64,000 bases of DNA from Streptococcus pneumoniae (GTDB lineage Bacteria; Bacillota; Bacilli; Lactobacillales; Streptococcaceae), in contig NZ_CRPU01000002.1 in assembly GCF_001096185.1 (NCBI RefSeq), positions 1 to 64,000 of the forward strand. The letters run 5' to 3'. Every line of letters starts with the position of its first letter. The first letter of the stretch is position 1. Below are positions 41,473 through 57,250 of this stretch, one piece after another. The position numbers and the translations under genes were made by a program. Below the pieces are notes generated by a model. That model saw only the letters and a list, made by a program, of their open reading frames with translations. It ran no database searches and was not told the DNA's origin.

Positions 41473-42235
41473 CAAACTACAGTCAAGTAATAGTGATTCT
41501 GTTTCTAAAAAGTCTAATTGAGTGTAAAACTGTTGTTTTCAATTGAAAGTCCTATAGTAAAATGAAATAAAAACAGGACAAATCAATCAGGATAGTCAAA
41601 TTAATTTCTAGCAATATTTTAGAAGCAAAGGTGTACTCTTATAGTTTCAATATACTGTATGGTTTGAAATGAGATGTGAGCAATTTGGTGTAGCATTTAG
41701 AATTTTTATTAGGCATCATTTAGAAAATGTAGTGTCTTGTTCTAGTTTTCAATTCACCCTATTTTTTGAAAGACGCGAGTTTCCACGATGAGGTTGTGGA
41801 AACTCGCGTCTTTCTTTTTTGTTTTCAGAATATTGTTCAAAGTTTTGAGACTATTTTTCATGTTCTAGTCATTCTTTTGAAATAATCTATAAAACACGTG
41901 TCTACAATGATTTATATGTCCTATTCCAGTATTTTAGAAGAACTGCGTTTATTTTTATAGAGCTTGAATCTAGCTTTTATAGAAAATCTATTTAAGAAAT
42001 ATATTGTATTGTTTTGATTTCAATCCGCTATATGAACGATATTCATGTAAATATACCTGGCGAATGCTTGCATGACAAGATATTTGTTCTTGTATTTATA
42101 AATTAGTATTTTACGAGATGTCAACATGCTTTAAATACAGTGAATAGGATATTTTTATATTCAAGCTAAGAAAGATAGTAATCACTTTTGAATGGAAGGT
42201 TAAAGAATTATTAGAAGTATGGTTAGATATATAAA
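41473..42235. other. AT-rich intergenic stretch upstream of pfbA
   Basis: About 760 bases without a gene. It contains the strong terminator at 41769-41818, some 300 bp after the aminotransferase stop, and otherwise AT-rich sequence with no ORF that has a ribosome site. The distance between gene and terminator suggests that a gene between them has been lost or decayed (inference). Confidence 0.5.
41769..41818 (+). terminator. Strong terminator
   Basis: Perfect 18-bp arms (41769-41786 and 41796-41813, AAAGACGCGAGTTTCCAC and complement) with a 9-nt loop, followed by CTTTTT. Confidence 0.92.
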
Positions 42236-42333
42236 TGGTCACGCTTTCACAATTTTGATATTTTATTGTGTTATTCCTTGACAATTTTGATTTAAAAATA
42301 TATTATAAAGAAAATGACAGCGGTGTCATTTTC
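42236..42333 (+). promoter_or_regulatory. pfbA promoter with cre-like site and LacI-type operator
   Basis: -35 TTGACA (42278-42283), 17 bp, -10 TATTAT (42301-42306). Just after the -10, the palindrome GAAAATGACA-GCGG-TGTCATTTTC (42310-42333) contains TGACAGCGGTGTCA. This differs by one base from the operator at 48560-48573. A catabolite-repression-like site TGAAAGCGTGACCA (minus strand, 42236-42249) lies 28 bp upstream of the -35. The LacI-family protein at 54564 is the proposed repressor. Confidence 0.8.
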
Positions 42334-42392
42334 TGGTATGGAATTTATATGAATATTAAATTAGGACATAATATTTTTAATTGGAGGCTAAT

Positions 42393-44471
42393 ATGAAATC
42401 TTTTCAACAAAATGAGGTTTTCTCTATTCGTAAGTCTAAGGTGGGAGTTTGCTCAGTTCTCTTAGCGGTTTTATTTATTGGAACACAAAGTGTTTTAGCT
42501 AATGAAGTAGTTGGTGAAACTTCTTCGTCTAAAGATAATATGCAAATGAACTCTTTGTTGAGTAGCACATCTACATCATTATCTGCGGAACCCCATTCTG
42601 ATACTCTCAGTCTTGATAACAATTCAAGTTTAAGTACTGATAATAATGGAGGAGTGAGTATTAATCAAAATAAACCTGATATAACAAATGATACTATGAT
42701 GGGTAACATCTCTGGGATGGAAGTGAATACTATTTTAAGTACTAATCTGAACGAACACGTAGCTTTGAATGTTAAAGATTATGGAGCAATAGGTGACGGG
42801 GTTAATGATGATCGACAAGCAATTCAAGATACAATAGATGCTGCAGCTAAAGGACTAGGTGGAGGAAATGTATATTTTCCTGAAGGAACTTATTTAGTAA
42901 AAGAAATTGTTTTTTTAAAAAGTCATACACACTTAGAATTGAATGAGAAAGCTACAATTCTAAATGGTATAAATATTAAGAATCACCCTTCCATTGTTTT
43001 TATGACAGGTTTATTTACGGATGATGGTGCGCAAGTAGAATGGGGCCCAACAGAAGATATTAGTTATTCTGGTGGTACTATTGATATGAACGGTGCTTTG
43101 AATGAAGAAGGAACTAAAGCAAAAAATCTACCACTTATAAATTCTTCAGGTGCATTTGCTATTGGGAATTCAAATAACGTAACTATAAAAAATGTAACAT
43201 TCAAGGATAGTTATCAAGGGCATGCTATTCAAATTGCAGGTTCGAAAAATGTATTAGTCGATAATTCTCGTTTTCTTGGTCAAGCTTTACCTAAAACTAT
43301 GAAAGATGGGCAAATTATAAGTAAGGAGAGTATTCAGATTGAACCATTGACTAGAAAAGGTTTTCCTTATGCTTTGAATGATGATGGGAAAAAATCTGAA
43401 AATGTGACTATTCAAAATTCATATTTTGGTAAAAGTGATAAATCTGGAGAATTAGTAACAGCAATTGGTACACACTATCAAACATTGTCGACACAGAACC
43501 CCTCTAATATTAAAATTTTAAATAATCATTTTGATAACATGATGTATTCTGGTGTACGTTTTACAGGATTTACTGATATTTTAATTAAAGGAAATAGATT
43601 TGATAAGAAAGTAAAAGGAGAAAGTGTACATTATAGAGAAAATGGTGCAGCCTTAATAAATGCTTTTAGTTATAAAAATGTAAAAGATGAACTTGATTTA
43701 AATAAGAAAGTCGTTATTACTGAAAATACATTTTATATTTCTGATCCTAAAACAAAGGCTATTAGAGTAGCAAAAGATAGTGCAGAATATTTAGGAAAAG
43801 TATCAGATATTACTGTAACAAAAAATGTAATTAATAATAATTCTAAGGAAACAGAACAACCAAATATTGAATTATTACGAGTTAGTGATAATTTAGTAGT
43901 GTCAGAGAATAGTATATTCGGTGGTAAAGAAGGAATTGTTATTGAGGATTCAAAGGGTAAAATAACCGTTTTAAATAACCAATTTTATAATTTATCCGGT
44001 AAGTATATATCATTCATCAAATCTAATGCAAATGGGAAAGAACCTGTTATACGTGATAGCGATGGTAATTTCAATATTGTAACGGAGAATGGGCTTTACA
44101 AAATTGTAACAAATAACTTAAGTGATAAAAACGAAAAAGAAAAAAACAAAGAGGAAAAACAATCTAATTCAAATAATGTAATTGATAGTAACCAGAAGAA
44201 CGGAGAGTTTAACTCAAGTAAAGATAATAGACAAATGAATGACAAGATCGACAATAAACAAGATAATAAGACAGAAGAAGTAAACTATAAAATAGTTGGA
44301 GATGGCAGAGAAACTGAAAATCATATTAATAAATCTAAAGAAATAGTAGATGTAAAACAAAAATTACCAAAGACTGGTTCGAACAAGATTATGGAACTAT
44401 TCTTAACAGTGACAGGAATTGGTTTACTTTTGACACTAAAAGGGTTGAAGTATTATGGTAAAGATAAATAA
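42393..44471 (+). CDS. pfbA: LPXTG-anchored beta-helix surface protein PfbA-like
   Basis: A 692-residue cell-wall protein. The signal peptide is of the YSIRK type (FSIRKSKVGVCSVLLAVLFIG, residues 10-30), followed by an S/N-rich stretch. From about 125 there is a pectate-lyase-3 right-handed beta-helix (NVKDYGAIGDGVNDDRQAIQ). From about 550 there is a K/N/E-rich wall-spanning region, then LPKTG (about 658-662), a hydrophobic helix and a charged tail. It resembles pneumococcal PfbA, reported to bind plasmin(ogen) and fibronectin. The fold also suggests glycan binding or cleavage. TTGGAGG precedes ATG 42393. Confidence 0.87.
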   Translation: MKSFQQNEVFSIRKSKVGVCSVLLAVLFIGTQSVLANEVVGETSSSKDNMQMNSLLSSTSTSLSAEPHSDTLSLDNNSSLSTDNNGGVSINQNKPDITNDTMMGNISGMEVNTILSTNLNEHVALNVKDYGAIGDGVNDDRQAIQDTIDAAAKGLGGGNVYFPEGTYLVKEIVFLKSHTHLELNEKATILNGINIKNHPSIVFMTGLFTDDGAQVEWGPTEDISYSGGTIDMNGALNEEGTKAKNLPLINSSGAFAIGNSNNVTIKNVTFKDSYQGHAIQIAGSKNVLVDNSRFLGQALPKTMKDGQIISKESIQIEPLTRKGFPYALNDDGKKSENVTIQNSYFGKSDKSGELVTAIGTHYQTLSTQNPSNIKILNNHFDNMMYSGVRFTGFTDILIKGNRFDKKVKGESVHYRENGAALINAFSYKNVKDELDLNKKVVITENTFYISDPKTKAIRVAKDSAEYLGKVSDITVTKNVINNNSKETEQPNIELLRVSDNLVVSENSIFGGKEGIVIEDSKGKITVLNNQFYNLSGKYISFIKSNANGKEPVIRDSDGNFNIVTENGLYKIVTNNLSDKNEKEKNKEEKQSNSNNVIDSNQKNGEFNSSKDNRQMNDKIDNKQDNKTEEVNYKIVGDGRETENHINKSKEIVDVKQKLPKTGSNKIMELFLTVTGIGLLLTLKGLKYYGKDK

Positions 44472-45201
44472 AATTTGTTCGATACAAGGAAGTTCCGCAG
44501 AAAATGAGGATACTGTAGGTTCACAAAATCAGTATTTTTGGATTATTGATGGAGCTACAGATTTATATAATTCTAAAGAGGAGATAGGTTATTCAGTCTC
44601 AGAAGTTGTACATATTTTATCAGAAAGTTTGTCGGTTAATTGTAAAGAATCAAAAACTCTTAAACAAATATTTGAAACTGCTTTACTCGAGGTTAAAGAT
44701 GAAATCGGTTTAAACTCATATGAATTAACAGAGTATTATCGCTTACCAACATTTGCTTTTATATTTGCTAAACTTTCAGAAAAAAAGTTGGAGTATATGA
44801 TGCTAGGTGACTGCGTCATGTTAGTAAACGAAATGGAAATAACTGATCATAGAGTAGATAACTTATTTGAAAAAGGGAAAAATGAGATAAAAGATTCAAA
44901 TGGTACAAATAGTGTTTTAAATAAAAAAATTATTTTACAAAAAATCAGAAAATTATCTAATCAACCGAGTGGGTACTGGATAGGTTCGTTGGATGAGAGA
45001 TTTTTAGACCATGCTATTATTAATCAAATAGATGTTACTAGTGAACAAATTGTTTTAATGAGCGATGGCTTTTATGAATTCTATCAAAATAATCAAAATA
45101 AAACTTTTGAAGAGTTAATTAAGATGAGATTTAATTCTTCTGCTATTGATCCAATCTATGGAAAGAAGGATGATGCAAGTATTCTAGTAATTGATGTTTG
45201 A
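44455..45201 (+). CDS. PP2C-like protein phosphatase
   Basis: A 248-residue protein with the PP2C metal-site pattern. It has ENEDTVG (about 16-22), WIIDGATDL (Asp32, in place of DGhGG), MLGDCVM (about 122), LMSDGFYEF (about 204) and the terminal KKDDASILVID. It lacks membrane or signal segments. It starts 17 bp inside pfbA, so it is translationally coupled. The target is unknown. Being in an operon with a PhoU-like protein and sugar enzymes suggests a regulatory role in this pathway (inference). Confidence 0.75.
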   Translation: MVKINKICSIQGSSAENEDTVGSQNQYFWIIDGATDLYNSKEEIGYSVSEVVHILSESLSVNCKESKTLKQIFETALLEVKDEIGLNSYELTEYYRLPTFAFIFAKLSEKKLEYMMLGDCVMLVNEMEITDHRVDNLFEKGKNEIKDSNGTNSVLNKKIILQKIRKLSNQPSGYWIGSLDERFLDHAIINQIDVTSEQIVLMSDGFYEFYQNNQNKTFEELIKMRFNSSAIDPIYGKKDDASILVIDV

Positions 45202-45258
45202 TATATTGTTTAAAATATTAATTGTTACTATTGAACTTTGTTAAGAAGAGGTACCTAA

Positions 45259-45900
45259 ATGTTAAGGTTATATTTAGAAAATGAAATTATAGAATTATCA
45301 AATAATTTAGAGACCATTTGGGTATCTGTGCTTGATAAATATGAGAAGTTATTTGAATATTTATCAAATGAAGAACGAGTAGAATTGATTAAAGAAGATT
45401 TAATCATAAATGAGTCAGTTCTAAATATAGATAAAAAAGGATATGAGTTAATTTGTTTACAACATCCTGTTTCATATGACTTAAGAAGAATTATTAGTGT
45501 AATAAAAATATCAACTGACATTGAACGTATTGGGGATAGAATTGTTGAAATTTTAAAAAATCTACAGATTATTCAAAATAATGAAATGTTGAAGAAAATT
45601 ATTTCAGAAATAAAAATACTTCATGAAGATATCGGACTGCATATGAATAGGGCTATATCTTGTTATAGAGAGGAACAATCTGGATGTTTAGATATGGTTG
45701 TTATACAAAAACAGAATGAGATAGAAGAGCTTAGTATAAATATTGAAAAGAAAATAATGAATTACATATTTGAAGATGATGGGAACGTTTCTGAAGTAAT
45801 TGGTGCTTTGGATATTATTCATCACCTTGATAAAATTGCTCATACTACGCAATCAATTTATAAATGGATAATGTATAGAAAATATGGGAACATAAATTAG
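45259..45900 (+). CDS. PhoU-like regulator
   Basis: A 213-residue all-helical protein of the PhoU family. The signature CLQHPVSYDLRRIISVIKISTDIERIGDRIVEI occurs once clearly (about 70-103). A degenerate second repeat is near the C-terminus (EVIGALDIIHHLDKIAHTTQSI). PhoU proteins modulate phosphate uptake and metal-dependent signalling. No pst phosphate transporter is next to it. It is in the pfbA operon, AT-rich like its neighbours. Confidence 0.82.
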   Translation: MLRLYLENEIIELSNNLETIWVSVLDKYEKLFEYLSNEERVELIKEDLIINESVLNIDKKGYELICLQHPVSYDLRRIISVIKISTDIERIGDRIVEILKNLQIIQNNEMLKKIISEIKILHEDIGLHMNRAISCYREEQSGCLDMVVIQKQNEIEELSINIEKKIMNYIFEDDGNVSEVIGALDIIHHLDKIAHTTQSIYKWIMYRKYGNIN

Positions 45901-45912
45901 AAAGAAAAATAT

Positions 45913-47389
45913 ATGAAAACAATTATTGATAATTTTGTTGATAGAGTAATTGAATACGGAATGTATAATGAAATTGACAAAATATATGTGAAAAATAGAG
46001 TACTAGCGTTAATAGGTGAGGAGGGAACTGATTGCATTTCCGATGAAAATGACCTGAAACTAATAAAAGATTACTTAGTGGAAATCGCCTTAAAAAACGG
46101 TAAAATTAAAGATTTAATCGAGGAAAAGGAATGTTTAGGAGCAGAGTTAATGAATTTCATAGTTCCTTTACCTAGTCGATTAAATGATATTTTTTGGAGT
46201 TCATATGATATATCACCTCAAGAAGCAGTTGAAGAGTTTTATAAGTTAAGTAAAGATAGTGATTATATTAAAACTTCTGCTATTGCTAAGAATATTGAGT
46301 TTAGAGCATCAACTAAATACGGAGAGCTAGAGATTACGATAAATTTGTCAAAACCCGAAAAAGATCCAAAAACAATTGCTGCTGAAAAATTAGTAAAAGC
46401 AACTAATTATCCCAAATGTTTACTATGTATGGAAAATGAAGGATATCAGGGGCGAATAAATTATCCAGCACGTTCGAATCATAGAATTATTCGGTTGAAA
46501 CTTGGTGACGAAGTATGGGGATTCCAGTATTCTCCCTACTCATACTTTAATGAGCATGCGATATTTTTAAATAGTCAACATGTACCAATGGCTATTACCT
46601 CTAAAACATTTGAACAATTATTGGAGATTGTTGATATTTTGCCAGGATATTTTGCTGGTTCAAATTCTGATCTTCCTATCTCAGGAGGCTCCATTCTTAG
46701 TCATAACCACTACCAGGGAGGGAAACATATTTTCCCAATGGAAAAAGCAAAATTTGAGAGTGAATTTCGTTTTAAAGACTTTGAGGATGTTAATGCTGGT
46801 ATTGTAAAATGGCCAATGTCAGTAATTAGGTTACAAAGTGAAAATAAAAATCGCTTGTTAGATTTAGCTACTAAAATTCTAAATAAGTGGAGAGAATATT
46901 CAGATTTAGAAGTAGACATCATTGCTATGACTGAAGATGTCTCACACCATACGGTGACTCCTATTGCTCGTAAAGTGGACGGGAGATACGAATTAGATAT
47001 TGTTCTAAGAGATAATCATACTACTGAACAATACCCAGATGGTGTTTTCCATCCTCATCAAGATGTACAACATATTAAAAAAGGAAAATATCGGGTTAAT
47101 CGAAGTGATGGGACTTGCGATATTACCACCTCGTTTGAAACCAGAGTTAGAAGAAGTTGGAAAATATCTTTTAGGAGAGGATAACGCAATTGCGGATTAT
47201 CATTTAGAATGGGCCGACCAATTGAAAGAAAAATATCCTCGCATTAATAAAGAAGAGGTTAATAGCGTAGTTCAACACGAAGTAGGACAAGTGTTTGCGA
47301 GAGTTCTGGAAGATGCAGGAGTTTATAAGAATACACCGTCTGGGCATGAAGCGTTTATGAGATTTGTTAAATCAGTTGGAATTAATTAG
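45913..47389 (+). pseudogene. galT2: Second GalT, broken by a one-base frameshift
   Basis: Very similar throughout to the GalT at 26721 (for example [26 protein letters not shown] and [21 protein letters not shown]). The first frame runs 45913-47184. At 47083-47084 the sequence AAAAAAGGAAAATATC has one more G than the AAAAAAGAAAATATC expected from [12 protein letters not shown]. Homology continues in the next frame to the stop at 47389. Corrected, it would be about 491 residues. Either a real inactivation or a sequencing error at a homopolymer junction. Confidence 0.85.
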
Positions 47390-47401
47390 GAGGAAACCCA
47401 A

Positions 47402-48412
47402 ATGGCAATATTGGTAACAGGCGGTGCTGGTTATATTGGTAGCCATACCGTAGTAGAATTACTAAATTTAGGAAAGGAAGTCGTCATTGTCGACAACCTT
47501 TCGAACTCTAGCATCTTGGTGTTAGACCGTATTGAAGCAATTACAGGAATACGTCCCGTGTTTTACGAATTAGATGTTTGTGATAAACAAGCATTGAGAA
47601 AGGTATTTGAACAAGAATCGATTGATGCTGCAATTCATTTTGCAGGTTATAAAGCTGTCGGAGAATCCGTGCAAAAGCCTGTGATGTACTACAAAAATAA
47701 TATTATGAGTACATTGGCACTTGTTGAAGTGATGTCAGAATTTAATGTTAAAAAGATTGTCTTTTCTTCAAGTGCGACTGTATATGGAATTAACAATCAG
47801 TCACCTCTAATTGAGACGATGCAAACAAGTGCGACAAATCCTTATGGGTATACGAAAGTGATGCTTGAGCAAATTTTAAAAGATGTTCATGTGGCAGATT
47901 CAGAATGGAGTATTGCGTTGCTTCGTTATTTCAATCCAATTGGTGCTCATGAGTCTGGTTTGATTGGGGAAGATCCCTCAGGAATTCCTAACAACTTGAT
48001 GCCTTATATTGCACAAGTAGCGGTAGGTAAGTTGTCAGAGCTAAGTGTGTTCGGAAATGATTATGATACGCTTGATGGTACTGGTGTGCGTGATTATATC
48101 CATGTAGTAGATTTAGCAATAGGACATATAAAAGCTTTAGAAAAAGTATCTGAAAACACAGATGTTTATATCTATAACCTAGGCTCGGGAGAAGGTACTA
48201 GTGTATTACAACTTGTAAATACATTTGAAAGTGTTAATAAGATCCCTATTCCTTATAAAATAGTTCCAAGACGTTCAGGAGACGTTGCAACTTGTTATGC
48301 AAATGCAGACAAAGCGTATAAGGAATTAAATTGGAGGACAACAAAATCAATAGAAGACATGTGCAGAGACACATGGAATTGGCAATCAAAAAATCCTAAT
48401 GGATATAACTGA
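47402..48412 (+). CDS. galE2: UDP-glucose 4-epimerase (second copy)
   Basis: A 336-residue epimerase of the classical GalE type. It has TGGAGYIGSHT, FSSSATVYG, the catalytic YxxxK in NPYGYTK, LRYFNPIGAHESG and DYIHVVDLA. It is clearly distinct from the galE at 16441 and closer to textbook GalE. It follows galT2 by 12 bp with AGGAGG upstream and ends the pfbA operon. Together with GalT2 it would convert galactose-1-phosphate to UDP-glucose. Confidence 0.93.
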   Translation: MAILVTGGAGYIGSHTVVELLNLGKEVVIVDNLSNSSILVLDRIEAITGIRPVFYELDVCDKQALRKVFEQESIDAAIHFAGYKAVGESVQKPVMYYKNNIMSTLALVEVMSEFNVKKIVFSSSATVYGINNQSPLIETMQTSATNPYGYTKVMLEQILKDVHVADSEWSIALLRYFNPIGAHESGLIGEDPSGIPNNLMPYIAQVAVGKLSELSVFGNDYDTLDGTGVRDYIHVVDLAIGHIKALEKVSENTDVYIYNLGSGEGTSVLQLVNTFESVNKIPIPYKIVPRRSGDVATCYANADKAYKELNWRTTKSIEDMCRDTWNWQSKNPNGYN

Positions 48413-48507
48413 TGCTACCTTTAGTATGAGTTCTGTGTTTTAGATAAATTACTTAACCTTTTAATGACATGCATATTAAATGAAAGATAAATTTTTTTAA
48501 AAAAATT

Positions 48508-48573
48508 TGTGAAAGCGCTTGACAAAGTAAACGGTTTCGTTATATAATATAAGCATAGATGACACCGGTGTCA
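48508..48573 (+). promoter_or_regulatory. Promoter of the ABC importer operon with cre-like site and LacI-type operator
   Basis: -35 TTGACA (48519-48524), 18 bp, -10 TATAAT (48543-48548). Downstream lies the perfect 14-bp palindrome TGACACCGGTGTCA (48560-48573). A cre-like TGTGAAAGCGCTTGACA (48508-48524) overlaps the -35. The palindrome recurs with one change in front of pfbA (42315-42328), placing both operons under one LacI-type regulator (inference). Confidence 0.85.
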
Positions 48574-48596
48574 AATATAAAAAAGAGGGTCTTTAT

Positions 48597-49256
48597 ATGA
48601 AAAACCTAACAAAAATTAAGTTCAAAGAAAATGGAGAATTTAATCATTTTCCAGGAAATACTGTTGTAGCAAATCTTTATACTAAACAAGATTTGATGGA
48701 AGTTGTTGATATTATTCAATCACGTTATAGAGAATTACCATTTATCGATAAGTTTACTTTAACTCCAAGGAATTCTATTCACATGACTGTAATTGAATTG
48801 TTGTGCCATGAAAATCGTGAAACGGAGTTTTGGAGCAGTAATCTTCCTCTTGATACACCTTTACAGGAAATACATGATTACTTTGCTAAACAACTTGAAA
48901 TTTTTCCATTGTTGGATGAAGAAATTCATATGCGTGTGACTGAAATGGGAAAACAAAACATACTAGTTGAACCTGCAGATGAAGCTTCTGCAAAGAGATT
49001 AGAAGAAATTCGTACTTATGTTTCAGAAAAAGCAGGTGTTCGTTTCCCTAATCATGATAGATATCAATTCCATATTTCAATTGGATATCTTCGGATTCCT
49101 CTAACCGAAGAGGAGGAAGAAGAGTTTACTAAAGTCAGAGCAGAATTAACTGAAATTTTATTAGAGAAGATTCCAACTATTACTGTAAACCGTATTGACT
49201 ATACTGTATTTGAAGATATGAGACAATTTGTTCCATATCACGAAAAATTTAAATAA
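48597..49256 (+). CDS. 2H phosphoesterase-superfamily protein (DUF1868-like)
   Basis: A 219-residue cytoplasmic protein with the paired HxT/HxS motifs of 2H phosphoesterases: SIHMTVIELL (about residue 62) and YQFHISIGYL (about 160). The spacing and the RRNS-like TPRNSIHMT start match the DUF1868 group. 2H enzymes open cyclic phosphates or cleave 2',3'-type phosphodiesters on RNA and small molecules. It is the first gene of the importer operon, which suggests it processes a phosphorylated substrate (inference). Confidence 0.78.
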   Translation: MKNLTKIKFKENGEFNHFPGNTVVANLYTKQDLMEVVDIIQSRYRELPFIDKFTLTPRNSIHMTVIELLCHENRETEFWSSNLPLDTPLQEIHDYFAKQLEIFPLLDEEIHMRVTEMGKQNILVEPADEASAKRLEEIRTYVSEKAGVRFPNHDRYQFHISIGYLRIPLTEEEEEEFTKVRAELTEILLEKIPTITVNRIDYTVFEDMRQFVPYHEKFK

Positions 49257-49280
49257 AATAATAAAAAAGGAGAACTTATC

Positions 49281-50348
49281 ATGAAAAAAATGAAAGTTTG
49301 GTCTACTGTACTTGCAACGGGAGTTGCTCTTACTACACTTGCTGCTTGCTCTGGAGGTTCAAATTCTACGACTGCTTCTTCATCTGAAGAAAAAGCTGAT
49401 AAAAGTCAAGAATTAGTAATCTATTCGAACTCAGTCTCAAATGGTCGTGGTGATTGGTTAACTGCTAAAGCAAAAGAAGCTGGTTTTAATATAAAAATGG
49501 TTGATATTCCTGGCGCTCAATTAGCAGACCGTGTTATTGCCGAGAAGAATAATGCAGTTGCAGATATGGTATTTGGAATTGGTGCTGTTGATTCAAATAA
49601 AATTAGAGATCAAAAATTACTAGTACAGTACAAGCCTAAATGGTTAGATAAAATTGATCAATCTTTATCAGATAAAGATAATTATTATAATCCTGTGATT
49701 GTTCAACCATTAGTTTTAATTGGGGCGCCTGATGTAAAAGAAATGCCTAAAGATTGGACGGAATTAGGTAGTAAGTATAAAGGTAAATATTCAATTTCTG
49801 GTCTTCAAGGTGGTACAGGACGGGCAATTCTAGCAAGTATCTTAGTTCGATACCTTGATGATAAAGGTGAATTAGGTGTTTCCGAAAAAGGTTGGGAAGC
49901 AGCAAAAGAATATTTGAAAAATGCATACACTCTTCAAAAGGGAGAAAGTTCAATTGTTAAGATGTTAGACAAAGAAGATCCAATACAATATGGAATGATG
50001 TGGGGTTCTGGTGCATTAGTTGGACAAAAAGAACAAAATGTTGTTTTCAAAGTTATGACTCCTGAGATTGGTGTACCATTTGTAACTGAACAAACTATGG
50101 TTTTAAGCACTAGTAAAAAACAAGCGTTAGCTAAAGAATTTATTGATTGGTTTGGTCAATCAGAAATTCAAGTAGAATATAGTAAGAACTTTGGATCTAT
50201 TCCTGCAAATAAAGATGCCCTAACAGAGTTACCTGAAGATACGAAAAAATTTGTTGATCAAGTGAAACCACAAAATATTGACTGGGAAGCTGTTGGAAAA
50301 CATTTGGATGAATGGGTAGAAAAAGCTGAATTAGAATACGTACAATAA
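49281..50348 (+). CDS. ABC importer substrate-binding lipoprotein (Fe3+/phosphonate/sugar-phosphate type)
   Basis: A 355-residue lipoprotein with lipobox LTTLAAC (Cys23) and an S/T-rich linker. The mature part is a type II binding protein of the AfuA/FbpA/PotD-like group (ELVIYSNSVSNGRGDWLTAKAKEAGFNIKMVDIPGAQLADRVIAEKN). Characterised relatives bind ferric iron, 2-aminoethylphosphonate or hexose phosphates. The residues do not settle which. The surrounding GalT/GalE and 2H phosphoesterase genes point to a phosphorylated sugar (inference); iron uptake is the main alternative. Confidence 0.85.
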   Translation: MKKMKVWSTVLATGVALTTLAACSGGSNSTTASSSEEKADKSQELVIYSNSVSNGRGDWLTAKAKEAGFNIKMVDIPGAQLADRVIAEKNNAVADMVFGIGAVDSNKIRDQKLLVQYKPKWLDKIDQSLSDKDNYYNPVIVQPLVLIGAPDVKEMPKDWTELGSKYKGKYSISGLQGGTGRAILASILVRYLDDKGELGVSEKGWEAAKEYLKNAYTLQKGESSIVKMLDKEDPIQYGMMWGSGALVGQKEQNVVFKVMTPEIGVPFVTEQTMVLSTSKKQALAKEFIDWFGQSEIQVEYSKNFGSIPANKDALTELPEDTKKFVDQVKPQNIDWEAVGKHLDEWVEKAELEYVQ

Positions 50349-50373
50349 GAAATAAGAGTTAATTTTTATGTCC

Positions 50374-50423
50374 AAGTCTCTCTATTATTTCTAAATTTAT
50401 AGAAGAAATAAAGAGAGGCTTTT
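50374..50423 (+). terminator. Intercistronic attenuator after the binding-protein gene
   Basis: AAGTCTCTCT with TATTTCT pairs with AGAAATA and AAGAGAGGCTT around a loop of about 10 nt, followed by TTTGG. Such hairpins keep binding-protein mRNA in excess over the ATPase and permease. Confidence 0.65.
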
Positions 50424-50450
50424 GGTTTAGTAATAGAGGGAGTTAGTGAG

Positions 50451-51461
50451 ATGATTAAATTTGATAATATTCAAATTAAATATGGTGATTTTGTTGCAAT
50501 TGATAATCTGAATTTAGATATTCATGAAGGCGAATTCTTTACCTTTCTTGGACCTTCTGGATGTGGTAAATCAACTACTTTGAGAGCATTGGTAGGTTTT
50601 TTAGATCCATCATCAGGAAGTATTGAAGTTAATGGAACAGACGTTACTCATTTGGAGCCGGAAAAACGTGGAATTGGTATTGTATTTCAATCTTATGCCC
50701 TATTTCCAACTATGACTGTTTTTGATAATATTGCATTTGGTTTAAAAGTTAAGAAGGTAGCTCCAGATGTTATTAAAGCAAAAGTATCAGCAGTAGCAGC
50801 AAAAATTAAGATCTCTGATCAACAGTTACAGCGTAATGTATCAGAACTATCTGGGGGTCAACAACAACGTGTAGCATTAGCTCGTGCTCTAGTTCTTGAA
50901 CCTAAAATCCTATGTTTAGATGAACCATTGTCAAACCTTGACGCAAAATTACGTGTAGATTTGAGAAAAGAGTTGAAAAGACTTCAGAAAGAACTAGGTA
51001 TTACTACTTTATATGTTACTCATGATCAAGAAGAAGCCTTGACTTTATCTGATAGAATTGCAGTCTTTAACAATGGATACATCGAACAGGTCGGTACACC
51101 AGTAGAGATTTATCATAATTCTCAAACTGAATTTGTATGTGATTTCATTGGAGATATTAACGTTTTGACCGATGAAACAGTCCACGAAGTATTACTGAAA
51201 AATGCTAGCGTTTTCTTGGAAGATAAAAAAGGATACATTCGATTAGAGAAAGTTCGATTCAATCGTGAAACTGAACAAGATTTTATTCTAAAAGGGACAA
51301 TTATTGATGTTGAGTTTTCTGGAGTTACAATTCACTATACAATAAAAGTTTCTGAGAGTCAGATTCTTAATGTAACAAGTATTGATAGTCAGGCTGCTAT
51401 TAGATCTGTCGGAGAAAGTGTGGAATTATTTATCACACCATCAGACGTTCTGCAATTTTAA
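50451..51461 (+). CDS. ABC importer ATPase (AfuC/PotA-like)
   Basis: A 336-residue ATPase. Walker A is GPSGCGKST (about 35-43), the Q-loop is [16 protein letters not shown], the signature is [15 protein letters not shown], Walker B is [16 protein letters not shown] and the switch is [10 protein letters not shown]-terminal TOBE-type domain follows (about 240-336). It energises the two-domain permease encoded 11 bp downstream. Confidence 0.93.
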
Positions 51462-51472
51462 GGAGGTGCAGT

Positions 51473-53164
51473 ATGCGTCATAAATTAAATTTAAAAGATT
51501 GGCTTATTCGTTTAGGGTTAATCTGGTTCTTAGTAACATTTATTATTTATCCAAACTTTGATCTAGTAGTGAATGTATTTGTAAAAGGAGGAGAATTTTC
51601 CCTTGATGCTGTACATCGTGTTCTAAAATCTCAGAGGGCACTTCAGAGTATTATGAACAGTTTTAAGTTAGCATTTTCACTCATTATTACAGTTAATGTC
51701 GTAGGTATTCTTTGTGTTCTATTTACAGAGTACTTTGATATTAAAGGTGCTAAAATTTTAAAATTAGGTTATATGACCTCTTTAATTTATGGAGGAGTGG
51801 TTTTAGCGACTGGATATAAATTTGTCTATGGTCCTTATGGATTGATAACAAAATTTTTACAAAATGTTATCCCTTCTTTAGACCCTAACTGGTTTATTGG
51901 GTATGGTGCAGTCTTATTCATTATGACATTTTCAGGAACTGCTAATCATACATTGTTTTTAACAAATACAATTCGAAGCGTTGACTATCACACTATTGAG
52001 GCTGCTCGAAATATGGGAGCAAAACCATTTACTGTTTTCCGAAAAGTAGTGTTACCAACCTTAATTCCAACTCTATTTGCACTTACTATTATGGTTTTTC
52101 TTAGTGGTTTATCTGCAGTAGCAGCACCCATGATTGTTGGTGGTAAAGAATTTCAAACTATAAATCCAATGATTATTACATTTGCAGGGATGGGGAATTC
52201 TCGTGATTTAGCTGCCCTACTTGCAATTATTTTAGGTATTGCAACTACAATTTTGCTTACTATCATGAATAAGATAGAAAAAGGTGGAAATTATATTTCT
52301 ATCTCTAAGACTAAAGCGCCTCTTAAAAAACAAAAAATTGCGTCTAAGCCTTGGAATATCATTGCTCACATTGTAGCATATGGATTGTTCACAGTTTTCA
52401 TGCTTCCACTAATTTTTATAGTATTATACTCATTTACAGATCCAGTTGCAATTCAAACAGGTAACTTAACATTATCAAACTTTACTTTAGAAAATTATCG
52501 CCTATTCTTTAGTAATAGTGCGGCATTCTCTCCATTCTTGGTCAGCTTTATTTATTCTATTATCGCTGCGACAACAGCAACAATTCTCGCAGTTGTATTT
52601 GCTCGAGTTGTCAGAAAACATAAAGCTCGTTTTGATTTCTTATTTGAATATGGTGCTCTACTTCCTTGGTTACTACCAAGTACACTTTTAGCAGTAAGTT
52701 TATTATTTACTTTTAATCAGCCACAATTTCTTGTCTTGAATCAGATTTTGGTAGGTAGTTTGGTAATTCTACTTATTGCATATATAGTTGTAAAAATCCC
52801 ATTTTCTTATAGAATGGTACGTGCTATTTTATTTAGTGTTGATGATGAGATGGAAGATGCAGCAAGAAGTATGGGTGCTTCACCTTTTTATACTATGATG
52901 AAGGTTATCATTCCATTTATTTTACCGGTTGTTCTCTCTGTTATTGCTTTAAACTTTAACTCTTTATTAACTGACTTCGACTTATCTGTATTTCTTTACC
53001 ATCCATTAGCTCAACCACTGGGTATAACTATTCGTTCAGCAGGTGATGAAACAGCAACTTCAAATGCTCAAGCACTTGTATTCGTTTATACTATTGTATT
53101 AATGATAATTTCTGGTTCTGTTTTATACTTTACTCAGAGACCAGTTAGTAGAAAAAGGAAATAA
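51473..53164 (+). CDS. ABC importer permease, two fused transmembrane domains
   Basis: A 563-residue protein with two binding-protein-dependent permease domains in tandem, each with an EAA loop: [20 protein letters not shown] (about 175) and [20 protein letters not shown] (about 465). About twelve membrane helices are present. This single-chain arrangement is typical of the AfuB/FbpB/PhnV-type systems. AAGGAGG precedes the start. Confidence 0.92.
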
Positions 53165-53166
53165 TA

Positions 53167-53877
53167 ATGCAAGCAACAAGCTTAGGACTATCATATATCG
53201 AAATTGTATTAAGAATTGTACTTTCATTAGTTATTGGTGGTGTAATTGGTTTAGAGAGAGGAAGTAAATCTCAACCAGCAGGTATTCGTACACATAGTAT
53301 TGTTTGTCTGGCTGCATGTTTAATTATGATGACTAATGAGTATGTATCTTATAAATTTGGTACAGGAGATCCTACACGCTTAGGTGCGCAGGTTATATCA
53401 GGTGTTGGTTTTCTTGGGGCTGGAACAATACTTATTACAGATAAAAAGAAAATAACTGGTTTAACAACTGCAGCCGGAATATGGGCTTCAGCTGGAATCG
53501 GTCTAGCTATTGGTGTTGGTTTTTATGAAGGAGCCATACTAGGAGCAATGTCTGTTTGGAGTGTTATAACTATGTTCCAACCTTTAAAAAAATATCTTCA
53601 AAGTCGTTCAAAGATAATCGAATTGTATATCGTTGTTAGATCTACAGAGGCATATAATCGGGTACTAGTATACTGTGCTGAGAATGGCATTAGAATGACT
53701 GATTCTAGAACTGCATTTGGAGATGTTAATTCAGAAAGAATTGAATATTTTGATGTTCCAGACAAAAAAATCGCGTCATTTATTACTCTGGAATTATCAG
53801 GTAGATTTGAGCACCTTAAACTAATGGAAGAAATTGCTAATATTGTTGGTGTGATTTATGTTGAGGAAATCAGCTAA
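53167..53877 (+). CDS. MgtC/SapB-family membrane protein
   Basis: A 236-residue protein. The N-terminal half holds the MgtC membrane domain (GGVIGLERGSKSQPAGIRTHSIVCLAA; GVGFLGAGTIL; TTAAGIWASAGIGLAIGVG), and a soluble ACT-like C-terminal domain follows (about 150-236). MgtC proteins aid growth in low magnesium and restrain ATP synthase and phosphate uptake in enterobacteria. It starts 2 bp after the permease and closes the importer operon. Confidence 0.9.
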   Translation: MQATSLGLSYIEIVLRIVLSLVIGGVIGLERGSKSQPAGIRTHSIVCLAACLIMMTNEYVSYKFGTGDPTRLGAQVISGVGFLGAGTILITDKKKITGLTTAAGIWASAGIGLAIGVGFYEGAILGAMSVWSVITMFQPLKKYLQSRSKIIELYIVVRSTEAYNRVLVYCAENGIRMTDSRTAFGDVNSERIEYFDVPDKKIASFITLELSGRFEHLKLMEEIANIVGVIYVEEIS

Positions 53878-53886
53878 TCTAGGGAT

Positions 53887-53925
53887 AAACAAAGGGACGG
53901 ATTATTCTAGTCCTTTTGTTTTCTT
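53887..53925 (+). terminator. Terminator of the importer operon
   Basis: AAACAAAGGGAC (53887-53898) pairs with GTCCTTTTGTTT (53910-53921) and is followed by TCTTT, 10 bp after the mgtC-like stop. Confidence 0.8.
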
Positions 53926-53944
53926 TAAATAATAAGAAATATAA

Positions 53945-54043
53945 GGGCACATCTAAAAACTCAATTTCAATACTTTTAAACATTGATGTATCAACGTTTT
54001 CTGAGCAATAAAAATAGAAAATCGGTAGTTTTTAGAGGTGTCC
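53945..54043. mobile_element. 99-bp MITE with 17-bp terminal inverted repeats
   Basis: The ends GGGCACATCTAAAAACT (53945-53961) and, inverted, GGACACCTCTAAAAACT (54027-54043) match at 15 of 17 positions. ATAA is present directly outside both ends (53941-53944 and 54044-54047), as expected of a target duplication. The interior is AT-rich and non-coding. The ends resemble those of IS5-type elements, though the parent element is not in this window. Confidence 0.8.
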
Positions 54044-54439
54044 ATAATAATTTTTGAAGAAAAGGATCTAACTAATTTGAGAGTATATAAAGTGGATTTT
54101 GATGCAGGAAAAATAACTTATTTTGATGACTATAATCTCATACAGGTATACCACTTCCATTCATTTTATGATGTTTGTGAGATGGTGTTCGCTTGTCATT
54201 TACCATTTGAAGAAATGCTTAGAAATGTTATTGTTAAGGAGAAAGCTGTTCCCATATTAGAGTGTTATATTGAACAGATAATGAATACATTTATAAATAC
54301 AGAAGGATTTACTGAAAATGATTCCTTGGAATTTTCAGGTAGTGTATTTTCTTATCCGGTGATTTGTAATGCAGTTTACAAAATAGTACAAAACAGTGAA
54401 TTGAATTGTAAAATTTATGTTACTAGTACTGAAAGTTAA
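54038..54439 (+). CDS. Hypothetical protein, start supplied by the MITE
   Basis: A 133-residue acidic soluble protein with no recognised domain (FEEKDLTNLRVYKVDFDAGKITYFDDYN; aromatic-rich VYHFHSFYDVCEMVF). The frame opens with GTG at 54038, which lies inside the terminal repeat of the MITE, and only AGAGG just upstream could act as a poor ribosome site. The native start may have been removed or replaced by the insertion. A start further in is unlikely because no ATG precedes residue 60. It could be 5'-truncated and silent. Confidence 0.5.
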   Translation: MSIIIFEEKDLTNLRVYKVDFDAGKITYFDDYNLIQVYHFHSFYDVCEMVFACHLPFEEMLRNVIVKEKAVPILECYIEQIMNTFINTEGFTENDSLEFSGSVFSYPVICNAVYKIVQNSELNCKIYVTSTES

Positions 54440-54503
54440 TGTAGATTTAGTGAAGTATTTCCTCCAGATGTAAACTAGATTAAAAGATTAGAATGTAATT
54501 TTC

Positions 54504-54532
54504 TTGTTAAAATAATTTAAATATTGTATAGT
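54504..54532 (+). promoter_or_regulatory. Promoter of the LacI-family regulator
   Basis: -35 TTGTTA (54504-54509), 17 bp, -10 TATAGT (54527-54532), 31 bp before the ATG. No TGACACC-type operator is present here, so the regulator does not appear to control itself through that site. Confidence 0.65.
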
Positions 54533-54563
54533 TATAGTGAAGGTTTATGACAGGAGTATTTTA

Positions 54564-55559
54564 ATGGAAAAAGGGAAAAAGGTAACGATATATGATATTG
54601 CACGTTTGTCTGGTTTTTCTCCAAAGACAGTTTCACGTGTAATAAATGGAGGGAATAGAGTAAAACCTGAGACTTATAATGCCATAAAAAAAGTCATTGA
54701 TGAGTTATCCTATATTCCAAATGCCTATGCTCAGAATTTAACGAAGAAAGAAACCACGAATATTTTAATATCTGTGAAGAAGATTGATTCTTTTCCTTTA
54801 ATCTGGTTTCAAACACTTTTAGATAAAGTTTTACAAACTTGTAGACAATTTGGAGTAAATGCTATTGTTGAATATTTTGGAGAGGAAGATTCGATTAGTA
54901 ATTCAATTATTTCAAGTATTGGTAGCCTTGTAGATGGAGTGATTGTCTTTTATGAGGGGGAGAATGATATTCGAATCCAATATTTAAAGAAAAATAATAT
55001 GCCTTTCATTGTCTTTGGAGAGTCTCAAACACCTGGAGTAGTTTACGTATCTAACAATAACTTTCAAGCTACTTATGATATGATGAAAGTAGTTTTGGAA
55101 AAGAATTTTAAAGATATGTGGTTACTTATGGGAGGTGAGTCTTATGTAAATAAGGATCGAGAGAGAGGAGTGAGAACTTTTTTAAAGGATAATAATTATT
55201 CTATGGATTTGAAGGTAGTTTATGGTTTAACTACAATAGAGTCAGTTTATTCCTTTGCTGTGAATGATTTGTCTTTTGGAAATTATCCAGATATTATATT
55301 TGTTTCAGGCGATGAAAAAGTTCAGGGACTAATTCGTGCGTGTTACGAAAAAGGAATAGCGATTCCGGATAATATATCCGTTGTTGGATTTGATAATATT
55401 CCAATTTCACAGTATTACACTCCTGCTTTATCTACAATTTCTCCTAATTATGTTAAATTAGCTCAAGAAATGATTGAAGGGGTATTAGCAATTATAAAGG
55501 GGGAAAGTGTCACATCTGTTGAAGTTTCTACTAAACTTGTTAGGAGACAGAGTTTCTAG
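54564..55559 (+). CDS. LacI-family regulator of the pfbA/importer regulon
   Basis: A 331-residue LacI-type regulator. The helix-turn-helix VTIYDIARLSGFSPKTVSRVINGG is at residues 7-30, the hinge YIPNAYAQNLTKK follows, and the sugar-binding-like domain ends with PDNISVVGFDNIPISQYYTPALSTI. AGGAG precedes ATG 54564; the frame extends to an upstream start without a ribosome site. It is the only such regulator near the two TGACACCGGTGTCA-like operators at 42315 and 48560. That makes it their likely repressor (inference). The effector is unknown. Confidence 0.87.
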   Translation: MEKGKKVTIYDIARLSGFSPKTVSRVINGGNRVKPETYNAIKKVIDELSYIPNAYAQNLTKKETTNILISVKKIDSFPLIWFQTLLDKVLQTCRQFGVNAIVEYFGEEDSISNSIISSIGSLVDGVIVFYEGENDIRIQYLKKNNMPFIVFGESQTPGVVYVSNNNFQATYDMMKVVLEKNFKDMWLLMGGESYVNKDRERGVRTFLKDNNYSMDLKVVYGLTTIESVYSFAVNDLSFGNYPDIIFVSGDEKVQGLIRACYEKGIAIPDNISVVGFDNIPISQYYTPALSTISPNYVKLAQEMIEGVLAIIKGESVTSVEVSTKLVRRQSF

Positions 55560-56071: not shown

Positions 56072-57250
56072 ATGACAACTAAAGGTTATTTTGGACAATT
56101 TGGTGGTAGTTTTGTACCGGAGCCGATTCAGGCTTTGTTGGATGAGTTGGAAGTGACATTTGACAAGTACAAGGATGATCCAGAGTTTTTGGCAGAATTT
56201 CGCCATTACTTGAAGGATTATTCAGGTCGCGAAACACCGCTCTATTTTGCAGAAAGTTTGACAGAACACTTAGGTGGCGCTAAGATTTATCTCAAGCGCG
56301 AAGACCTTAACCATCTTGGTTCTCACAAACTCAATAACGTTTTAGGACAAATTCTTTTGGCCAAACGCATGGGCAAAAAACGAGTAATCGCAGAAACAGG
56401 AGCTGGTCAGCACGGTGTTGCGACTGCAGCTGCTGCAGCTAAGTTTGGTATGGCCTGTGATGTCTACATGGGGGCAGAAGATGTGGAACGTCAACGTCTC
56501 AATGTTTTCCGTATGGAGATGATGGGAGCAACTGTTCATGCAGTTGAAACAGGGACTCGTACCCTCAAAGATGCGGTTGATGCAGCCTTTGGAGCATGGA
56601 TGAATGACCTTGAAGCTTTCTATGTTTTAGGATCTGCTGTAGGACCACACCCTTATCCTACTATTGTCCATGAGTTCCAAAAGGTCATCAGTGAAGAATC
56701 TCGTCGTCAAATCTTGGAAAAAGAAGGACGCTTGCCAGACTATGTTATTGCCTGTGTAGGTGGTGGTTCCAATGCCATTGGTGCTTTTTCTCAGTATGTG
56801 GCTGATGAAGAAGTCAAATTGGTTGGGGTTGAAGCTGCTGGTCACGGACTTGATACAGATAAGCACGCAGCTACTATGACAAAAGGTAGCATCGGAATTG
56901 TCGACGGAATGAAGACCTATGCAGTCTTTAAAGAAGATGGAGAGCTGGCTCCAGTTTACTCTATCTCAGCTGGATTGGACTATCCAGGGGTTGGCCCAGA
57001 ACACGCCTACTTCAAAGATTCAGGTCGCGTGGAATATGTGGCTGCGACAGACGAAGAAGCTGTTCAGGCTCTCCTCCTTCTCAGCAAGACTGAAGGAATT
57101 ATCCCAGCGATTGAAAGTTCGCATGCTATCGCAGAAGCGGTTAAACGTGCACCGAAACTAAGTAAAGATGAGATTATCATCATCAATGTCTCTGGTCGTG
57201 GGGACAAGGACGTAGCTGCGATTGCAGACTACCTAGAAGCTAAAAAATAA
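56072..57250 (+). CDS. trpB2: Extra tryptophan synthase beta chain (TrpB paralogue)
   Basis: A 392-residue complete TrpB. The PLP lysine is in [10 protein letters not shown], with catalytic Glu in AETGAGQHG, the phosphate loop [10 protein letters not shown] and [14 protein letters not shown]. It differs much from the operon TrpB at 61811 (for example [13 protein letters not shown] and [11 protein letters not shown] here, against [13 protein letters not shown] and an unrelated stretch there). It is nearer the enterobacterial pattern as I recall it. It has no TrpA beside it, is expressed from its own tryptophan T-box, and stands ahead of the full trp operon. Likely role: scavenging indole plus serine, or boosting the last step. 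Confidence 0.88.

What the first reader, a model, noticed from the sequence alone, without database searches (positions are those of the whole stretch)
42236..55559. Two operons joined by one LacI-type operator: a PfbA/importer regulon
TGACACCGGTGTCA (48560-48573) and the one-base variant TGACAGCGGTGTCA (42315-42328) each lie just after the -10 of a consensus promoter, and each has a cre-like site upstream. A LacI-family gene (54564) ends the region. Seen: the palindromes, promoters and gene order. Known: LacI repressors bind such sites. Inferred: the surface beta-helix protein PfbA, PP2C, PhoU-like protein, GalT2, GalE2, 2H phosphoesterase, importer and MgtC form one inducible pathway. PfbA has mainly been treated as an adhesin; here it looks like the outer part of a nutrient-acquisition system.
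Basis: partly seen in the sequence, partly recalled or inferred. Interest (0 to 1): 0.78.

Follow-up and report, generated by a model that had tools for sequence, protein, structure and literature searches.

The report
LacI regulon joining PfbA and importer
Two neighbouring gene groups in a pneumococcus-like Streptococcus, one for a surface "adhesin" and one for an importer thought to carry iron, appear to share a single repressor switch, and the genes look more like a kit for taking up a phosphate-linked sugar.

Summary
The palindromes lie where stated, 8 and 11 bases after the -10 of TTGACA/TATAAT promoters, and are the only matches with at most one mismatch in the genome. In 147 same-genus genomes all 13 with the LacI-family gene (two of them broken) have such a site, against 17 of 134 without it (Fisher p = 9e-11). 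One site per genome checked, a promoter lies just upstream in 13 of 13 against 0 of 17. PfbA occurs in 8 of 98 genomes, the same 8 that have the regulator. In Granulicatella the genes are rearranged into three units, each behind its own operator; in G021 galT and galE sit in the importer run. One published transcriptome moves both operons together (PMC5958418; weaker: PMC10887117). Very probably this is one LacI-repressed regulon. Its cargo is unproven. Of 28 related importers, 20 have a GDPD phosphodiesterase beside them; here a 2H phosphoesterase holds that place, with GalT and GalE but no galactokinase. I favour a phosphodiester or galactose-phosphate uptake route over the published iron label. 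In this genome galT is split by a frameshift.

The parts
42236..42249 (-). cre-like (CcpA) site upstream of the pfbA promoter
   Evidence: 1 mismatch to TGNAANCGNTNNCA (consensus recalled); 19 of 2000 shuffles do as well
42278..42306 (+). pfbA promoter, TTGACA-17-TATTAT
   Evidence: 11 of 12 consensus bases
42315..42328 (.). operator 1, TGACAGCGGTGTCA
   Evidence: same 14 bases before pfbA in most relatives, other variants in L048 and L089
42393..44471 (+). pfbA: YSIRK signal, right-handed beta-helix, LPKTG anchor (anchor read from the translation)
   Evidence: PF12708, PF13229, PF04650; solved PfbA structures 4mr0 and 3zpp
44455..45201 (+). PP2C-like phosphatase
   Evidence: PF13672, E 3e-9
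45259..45900 (+). PhoU-like protein (SPD_1614 type)
   Evidence: PF01895; below the cut-off of TIGR02135 phoU_full
45913..47389 (+). galT2 (hexose-1-phosphate uridylyltransferase), split here into two frames 45913-47184 and 47039-47389
   Evidence: one open frame in all 26 related loci that hold both parts, at least 7 of these being second copies of the same contig
47402..48412 (+). galE2, UDP-glucose 4-epimerase (name from the finding and literature; no family scan run on it)
   Evidence: tblastn matches of 76-100% identity in the related loci that hold it
48510..48523 (+). cre-like site overlapping the -35 of the importer promoter; a second one (2 mismatches, read by eye) lies in the spacer at 48527-48540
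   Evidence: like sequence in relatives
48519..48548 (+). importer promoter, TTGACA-18-TATAAT
   Evidence: 12 of 12
48560..48573 (.). operator 2, TGACACCGGTGTCA
48597..49256 (+). 2H phosphoesterase (DUF1868), HxT and HxS motifs present
   Evidence: PF08975, E 2.1e-43; solved relative 2fsq, E 1.6e-24
49281..50348 (+). importer substrate-binding lipoprotein (SPD_1609 type)
   Evidence: PF13343/PF13416; profile matches Fe3+-, 2-aminoethylphosphonate- and pyridoxal-phosphate-binding proteins
50451..51461 (+). importer ATPase
   Evidence: PF00005, TOBE
51473..53164 (+). importer permease, two permease domains fused
   Evidence: PF00528, two stretches
53167..53877 (+). MgtC/SapB family protein
   Evidence: PF02308
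54038..54439 (+). small conserved ORF, no family
   Evidence: no match in Pfam or NCBIfam; 37-99% identical match in 23 of the 30 loci
54564..55559 (+). LacI-family regulator (SP_1821 type), proposed repressor of both operons
   Evidence: PF00356 and PF13377; recognition helix SPKTVSRVIN identical in the 8 relatives compared

Best explanation
One locally encoded LacI-family repressor (54564-55559) controls two adjacent operons through a 14-bp palindrome, TGACAnCGnTGTCA, placed at the expected transcription start of each promoter; CcpA probably adds catabolite repression. Without inducer the repressor blocks both promoters; an inducer releases it and both operons rise together (regulon: about 0.93). 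The regulon most likely serves uptake of an extracellular phosphate-linked sugar. The surface beta-helix protein PfbA binds or processes the source polymer (inferred, 0.4). The lipoprotein-dependent importer brings in an organophosphate, probably a phosphodiester, rather than iron (0.6). The 2H phosphoesterase opens the diester inside the cell (0.5). GalT2 and GalE2 take the resulting galactose-1-phosphate into UDP-sugars and glucose-1-phosphate, which is why no galactokinase belongs to the set (0.45). PhoU-like, PP2C-like and MgtC proteins would manage the phosphate and magnesium load (0.35).
For: Operator: only two sites at up to 1 mismatch in the genome. All 13 regulator-bearing genomes of 147 carry it, against 17 of 134 others; 24 of the 25 sites in those 13 lie in this locus. 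A -10 ending 5-20 bases upstream in a promoter of at least 10/12: 13 of 13 against 0 of 17, best 9/12, one site per genome. Over 32 sites of 16 genomes 11 of 14 positions are invariant, though the sites were picked by likeness (2 mismatches or fewer). Recognition helix SPKTVSRVIN is the same in 8 relatives, down to 62% identity in the rest of the protein, and in none of the three other HTHs read from this genome, one of which differs by a single residue. Granulicatella elegans has three separate operators, before pp2c-galT, 2H-importer-mgtC and pfbA (L075). In G021 2H, SBP, ATPase, permease, mgtC, a 135-aa ORF, phoU-like, galT, galE and lacI form one run. PfbA is in exactly the 8 of 98 genomes with the regulator. 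SPD_1606-1610 and SPD_1613-16 rise together with arachidonic acid (PMC5958418); SPD_1614 and SPD_1607 both fall with DFMO (PMC10887117). Cargo: a GDPD adjoins 20 of 28 related importers, with no other match to that GDPD family in the same 487 kb and none in 14 loci of this regulon; one further locus has an Exo_endo_phos gene in that place. G283 has importer, GDPD, 2H and PP2C-like genes in one run.
Against: No binding, footprint or deletion data exist here. Many of the 13 genomes are close relatives, so the counts are not independent; in two of them the regulator is broken (G101 a remnant with a stop, G144 in two frames) while operators remain. The HTH region as a whole is not better conserved than the rest of the regulator (34/60 against 62% in G021), only its recognition helix. 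The binding protein's best profile matches are ferric-binding proteins (8k7n, 1xvx), and loss of SPD_1609 lowered cell iron in two papers, under iron depletion or in a piaA/piuA background (passages). galT-1 rose 49-fold in a galT-2 mutant on galactose, but lacD rose 87-fold too, so that may be general derepression. The mucin-induced genes named in the passages seen do not include this operon. PfbA showed no lyase activity on a panel naming seven polysaccharides. G098 has regulator, operator, 2H and importer but no PfbA and no galT/galE nearby, so the galactose part is not obligatory. G500 has the regulator but no 2H was found in its 510-contig assembly. Deleting spd_1614 gave no growth phenotype. 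In an RNase mutant table SPD_1614 alone of this set appears in the passage seen. 8 of 28 related importers have no GDPD beside them.
Confidence: 0.75

Rival explanations
1. Same regulon, but the importer is a ferric-iron transporter (AfuABC/FbpABC type), as published for SPD_1609 ('operon 804').
For: Profile matches to FbpA-type proteins are the strongest. SPD_1609 deletion lowered iron under depletion or in a piaA/piuA background, and operon 804 rose in a piaA/piuA/pitA mutant (PMC4738293 and PMC6682666, passages). A 2026 paper names it afuA-C (PMC13317198, passages).
Against: Control looks to be by a LacI-family regulator with cre-like sites. The partners are GalT, GalE, 2H and, in relatives, GDPD. 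The paired tyrosine of YfuA/SfuA (ligand role recalled) aligns with Y237-G238 here, not YY, though the alignment has a gap at this point. Weaker matches in the same fold family bind 2-aminoethylphosphonate and pyridoxal phosphate by their names.
Confidence: 0.25
2. The cargo is 2-aminoethylphosphonate or another phosphonate.
For: NCBIfam 2-aminoethylphosphonate models give the best score for each of the three importer parts; 4r6y is a profile match.
Against: All three scores are far below the curated cut-offs (61 against 310, 352 against 458, 100 against 593 bits). None of the proteins of the two operons scanned is a phosphonate-degrading enzyme (galE2 was not scanned).
Confidence: 0.08
3. The palindromes bind another regulator, and the LacI-family gene is a neighbour only.
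For: No binding test exists. A palindrome with a central CG is typical of the LacI family in general (recalled), which includes CcpA and others; this genome has 6 LacI-type HTHs, one of them differing from this regulator by one residue in the recognition helix (SPTTVSRVIN).
Against: 13 of 13 co-occurrence and co-conservation of the recognition helix with the operator. The three other HTHs read have different recognition residues (the remaining two were not read).
Confidence: 0.05
4. Chance palindromes without function.
For: At 3 mismatches the window count is not above chance.
Against:: position, sequence and spacing conserved across two families, including rearranged loci.
Confidence: 0.01

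Closest known systems
Pneumococcal block SP_1821-SP_1836 / D39 SPD_1606-1617 (RD11 region; 'operon 804')
   Same: Same genes in the same order in the S. pneumoniae locus L064 from pp2c to the regulator, with the identical importer operator (that locus starts inside pp2c, so its pfbA operator was not seen). Described as a block typical of S. pneumoniae and S. pseudopneumoniae, with SP_1821 listed as a LacI-family regulator located with an ABC transporter (PMC6722419, passages).
   Different: In the passages read no paper names an operator or says that this regulator controls these operons; the importer is called an iron or phosphate transporter and PfbA an adhesin.
LacI-family local sugar regulons of lactic acid bacteria (RegPrecise set, PMC3616900, passages)
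   Same: LacI-family regulators of carbohydrate genes, some shared with CcpA.
   Different: Content: surface beta-helix protein, 2H phosphoesterase, PhoU-like, PP2C, MgtC. Whether that paper's supplement lists this regulon could not be checked.
GDPD-linked importers of the same order (20 of 28 loci)
   Same: Homologous SBP, ATPase and fused permease (permease 41-67% identical), some with MgtC and LacI-type HTH proteins.
   Different: Here 2H takes the GDPD's place, and GalT, GalE and PfbA are added.
AfuABC / FbpABC importers
   Same: Family of the binding protein and component layout.
   Different: Fused permease; YG instead of the paired tyrosine; genetic partners act on phosphoesters and galactose.

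Membership tests
LacI/GalR-family repressor | N-terminal LacI HTH plus periplasmic-binding-protein-like sensor | tested here: met
   PF00356 E 1.5e-15, PF13377 E 1.7e-20
LacI/GalR-family repressor | Binds a palindrome with central CG overlapping or following the promoter | tested here: inconclusive
   Such palindromes are present and track the gene; binding itself not testable here
LacI/GalR-family repressor | Released by a sugar-type effector | not testable with these tools
   galT-1 rises 49-fold in a galT-2 mutant on galactose (PMC4380338), which is suggestive only
CcpA regulon | Conserved cre sites at the promoters | tested here: inconclusive
   1 and 2 mismatches in the window; best cre-like match 1 to 3 mismatches over the 32 promoters, at varying places
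FbpA-type ferric-binding protein | Sequence relationship | tested here: met
   Profile hits down to E 3.6e-19
FbpA-type ferric-binding protein | Paired tyrosine iron ligands (recalled) | tested here: inconclusive
   YG at the aligned place, but the alignment is gapped there
2-aminoethylphosphonate importer (PhnSTUV) | Scores above NCBIfam curated cut-offs | tested here: not met
   All three components far below
2H phosphoesterase (PF08975) | Two HxT/S motifs and domain match | tested here: met
   E 2.1e-43; IHMT and FHIS read in the sequence
Polysaccharide lyase / glycosidase (PfbA) | Catalytic activity | not testable with these tools
   Fold-family relationship only; no activity found in PMC3718772 (passages)
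PhoU (full, TIGR02135) | Score above cut-off | tested here: not met
   96 against 130 bits: PhoU-like

The most novel reading that the evidence does not exclude
The regulon is a galactose-1-phosphate salvage pathway that bypasses galactokinase. PfbA is a surface protein that grips or cleaves a phosphodiester-linked galactan (for example a streptococcal phosphoglycan). The importer takes up galactosyl-phosphodiesters or a cyclic galactose phosphate, the 2H enzyme opens these to galactose-1-phosphate, and GalT2/GalE2 feed it to glycolysis and capsule precursors. The published 'iron transporter' and 'adhesin' would then be parts of one nutrient pathway, induced by a galactose-phosphate signal.
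Probability: 0.25. Interest if true: 0.82.

Novelty: new variant of a known kind. Interest (0 to 1): 0.58.

Why it matters
PfbA is studied as an adhesin and SPD_1609 as an iron lipoprotein, both for virulence. If one repressor switches both on for a particular nutrient, mutant phenotypes need to be re-read: for example, SPD_1607-1610 were 24.6- to 107.5-fold up or switched on in an aliB mutant (PMC6687184, passages), which looks like derepression of a silent operon. It also gives a directly testable substrate class for PfbA's unexplained basic groove and names the regulator to assay. The regulatory mechanism itself is ordinary.

Tried and rejected
Chance: rejected on conservation, position and co-occurrence. 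Stop-free frames as a way to tell real from chance sites: all 17 regulator-free sites examined lie in a stop-free frame of at least 100 aa, but so do 7 of the 13 regulator-linked ones, so this alone does not discriminate; the promoter test does. PF08975 across the phylum for more 2H contexts: only the query genome matched of 398. phmmer of the PP2C-like protein against solved structures: no hit. PP2C of the window against the PP2C-like genes beside distant 2H genes: weak (E 1e-4 for G283, 0.10 for G180), so the 2H-PP2C pairing (2 of 2 distant 2H genes) is suggestive only. Structure prediction of the binding protein was switched off. Mucin and free galactose as inducers were not supported by the passages read. 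No background rate of GDPD next to unrelated importers was measured; the only control is that no other match to this GDPD family (E up to 1e-15) lies in the 28 stretches. Only 2 of the 20 GDPD genes were scanned by Pfam; the rest are assigned by BLAST to those. For one search one site per genome was examined (30 of the 44 sites listed).

Full report
THE OBSERVATION. Both palindromes are present at the stated places. TGACACCGGTGTCA (48560-48573) follows a perfect TTGACA-18-TATAAT promoter by 11 bases, and TGACAGCGGTGTCA (42315-42328) follows TTGACA-17-TATTAT by 8 bases. At 3 mismatches the window count is not significantly above shuffles (3 against a mean of 1.39; 20 of 100 shuffles reach 3). 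At up to 1 mismatch the whole 2.1-Mb genome holds only these two. Cre-like sites lie at 42236-42249 (1 mismatch) and 48510-48523 (2 mismatches, across the -35); by count alone the second is weak, but a like sequence is kept in most streptococcal relatives.

DOES THE SITE TRACK THE REGULATOR? In 147 genomes of the genus, 30 have a site with at most 1 mismatch and 13 have the regulator at E up to 1e-40. All 13 are among the 30, leaving 17 of 134 regulator-free genomes with a site (Fisher p = 8.6e-11). In two of the 13 the regulator is broken: a remnant with a stop in G101, two frames in G144. Of the 25 sites in the 13 genomes, 24 lie in this locus; one (G062, contig 47) does not. I examined one site in each of the 30 genomes. 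A promoter of at least 10 of 12 bases with its -10 ending 5-20 bases before the site is found in 13 of 13 regulator genomes and 0 of 17 others (best 9 of 12). Many of the genomes are close relatives, so the p-value overstates independence; the rearranged loci below suffer less from this.

REARRANGED RELATIVES. In Granulicatella elegans (L075) the unit is split in three, and each piece has its own operator: pp2c-galT, 2H-importer-mgtC, and pfbA. The unnamed G462 (L090) shows the same and has a contig of the same length (1,743,361 bases), so I take it as the same genome. At its pp2c operator one search prints a best promoter of 10/12 lying 41 bases upstream; a second of 10/12 (TAGACA-17-TATGAT, 8 bases upstream) can be read. 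In G196 (L089), which the tool puts in the same genus as G462, two exact operators precede pfbA-pp2c-galT-galE and 2H-importer-mgtC. In Streptococcus G021 (L048) ten ORFs run in one direction: 2H, SBP, ATPase, permease, mgtC, a 135-aa ORF, phoU-like (26% identity), galT, galE, lacI, with an operator in front and pfbA divergent behind a weaker one (2 mismatches). In the S. infantis-type genome (L052/L073) a third operator precedes an mgtC paralogue (43% over 123 residues). In G098 only regulator, operator, 2H, importer and mgtC remain. G101 keeps only a regulator remnant, an operator and a 37-codon remnant of the start of that mgtC paralogue. Across 32 sites of 16 genomes, 11 positions of 14 never vary, position 14 varies once, and only positions 6 and 9 vary freely; the sites were picked by likeness to the palindrome (2 mismatches or fewer), which helps this figure. 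The recognition helix SPKTVSRVIN is the same in all 8 relatives compared while the rest of the protein falls to 62% identity; the HTH region as a whole is no better kept than the rest (34 of 60 in G021). Of six LacI-type HTHs in this genome four were read, and the other three differ, one by a single residue.

PFBA BELONGS TO THE UNIT. The PfbA beta-helix was found in 8 of 98 genomes of the genus, the same 8 of those 98 that have the regulator. G098 and G101 have the regulator (a remnant in G101) and no PfbA; G196, G462, G500 and G021 have both. PMC6710382 (passages) reports PfbA in mitis-group streptococci and Granulicatella, which agrees. In the order-wide search the regulator was in 6 of 395 genomes and a close 2H in 5 of those 6; G500, a 510-contig assembly whose regulator contig ends inside the ATPase gene, gave none.

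PUBLISHED EXPRESSION. Passages only. With arachidonic acid SPD_1607-10 rose about 3.7-fold, SPD_1606 3-fold and SPD_1613-16 more than 4-fold; pfbA and galE-2 are not named there (PMC5958418). With DFMO SPD_1614 fell 6.7-fold and SPD_1607 2.7-fold (PMC10887117). SPD_1607-1610 rose 24.6- to 107.5-fold or were switched on in an aliB mutant (PMC6687184). Operon 804 rose in a piaA/piuA/pitA mutant (PMC4738293). galT-1 of this operon rose 49-fold in a galT-2 mutant on galactose, but lacD rose 87-fold as well (PMC4380338). Against: in a table of an RNase mutant SPD_1614 alone of this set appears in the passage seen (PMC8546594); in the biofilm study galT-1 is at 3.5 and galE-2 at 1.4 without the importer in the passage seen (PMC4592238). 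PMC6722419 lists SP_1821 as a LacI-family regulator located with an ABC transporter. In the passages read no paper gives an operator or says that this regulator controls these operons. The ten paper searches gave listings that I could follow only in part; the palindrome as a search term found no paper. The supplement of the regulon study PMC3616900 could not be opened, so a prior listing cannot be excluded.

WHAT THE IMPORTER CARRIES. The published view is iron. The binding protein's profile does match ferric-binding proteins best (8k7n, E 3.6e-19), but also proteins named as binders of 2-aminoethylphosphonate (4r6y) and pyridoxal phosphate (6wce), and 4r72, which I recall as the sugar-phosphate binder AfuA. 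At the place of the paired tyrosine seen in YfuA and SfuA the protein has Tyr-Gly, with a gap in the alignment. Genome context is more informative. A permease search of 395 genomes of the order gave 34 places, 6 of them in this regulon. I fetched all 28 others: 20 have a GDPD-type phosphodiesterase beside the importer, and no other match to that family lies in those 487 kb; none lies in 14 loci of this regulon. Two of the 20 were scanned by Pfam and are GDPD; the others are assigned by BLAST. Of the 8 without GDPD, L130 has an Exo_endo_phos gene; for L127, L132, L134, L137 and L145 the one to three neighbours scanned showed no phosphoesterase; L166 and L168 were not scanned. Some GDPD loci add a phosphatase (HAD in L126, metallophosphatase in L142, inositol-phosphatase type in L143). 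G283 has importer, GDPD, 2H and a PP2C-like gene in a row. In the regulon described here the 2H phosphoesterase holds the GDPD's place, and GalT and GalE, but no galactokinase, are present. The simplest reading is that a galactose-phosphate diester enters and yields galactose-1-phosphate directly. That step is inference; no call shows the substrate.

HOW IT PROBABLY WORKS. Shown by sequence: operators, promoters, their conservation and gene content. Inferred: the LacI protein represses both promoters, CcpA adds glucose repression, and an inducer related to galactose phosphate releases it. PfbA would hold or process the source polymer; its basic groove fits an acidic chain, but it had no lyase activity on a panel naming seven polymers (PMC3718772, passages). 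MgtC, PhoU-like and PP2C would balance phosphate and magnesium (weakest inference).

CAVEATS. galT2 is split by a frameshift in this genome, while it is one open frame in all 26 related loci that hold both parts, at least 7 of them second copies of the same contig; so this strain may lack the enzyme, or the assembly may err. In G039 (L050) phoU, galT and most of galE are missing from the locus. The galactose step is therefore not essential in every member.

VERDICT. The 'nutrient acquisition' reading of PfbA is plausible. My most likely cargo, a phosphodiester-linked sugar, departs from the iron label in print and is open to a direct binding test.

Noticed in passing
window 45913-47389: galT2 is split into two reading frames in this genome, while 26 of 26 related loci holding both parts have one open frame. 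Not mended; real loss or assembly error cannot be told.
   Followed up: partly
L126:4498-6531, L127:12259-14343, L128:5928-8027, L129:10526-12565, L131:3545-5734, L144:12100-14175: Large proteins (677-729 aa, one BLAST cluster) beside related importers; the three scanned have a LacI-type HTH, and two of these three also a solute-binding-protein domain (SBP_bac_8) as the probable sensor part.
   Followed up: partly
L052:16136-16149 and L073:11048-11061: The S. infantis-type locus carries an extra operator in front of an mgtC paralogue, extending the regulon there. L052 and L073 look like the same contig.
   Followed up: partly
L054:13208-13848: In G098 a second, partial or broken 2H copy lies between the operator and the full-length one.
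   Followed up: no
L050:8350-9193: In G039 phoU, galT and most of galE are missing, and the pp2c match runs into the galE end.
   Followed up: no
window 56072-57250: A trpB-like gene lies just after the regulator; in several relatives a second trpB match (57-59% identity) lies about 5 kb further on.
   Followed up: no
window 54038-54439: Small ORF of no known family between mgtC and the regulator, matched in 23 of 30 loci.
   Followed up: no
window 41768-41814: Strong 20-pair inverted repeat with T tail, a likely terminator that separates the pfbA operon from upstream genes.
   Followed up: no
L010, L011, L021, L022, L025, L026, L027: The same one-mismatch palindrome (TGACACAGGTGTCA or its complement) sits inside a 558-codon stop-free frame in 7 genomes without the regulator, probably a conserved coding coincidence.
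   Followed up: partly
   Followed up: no
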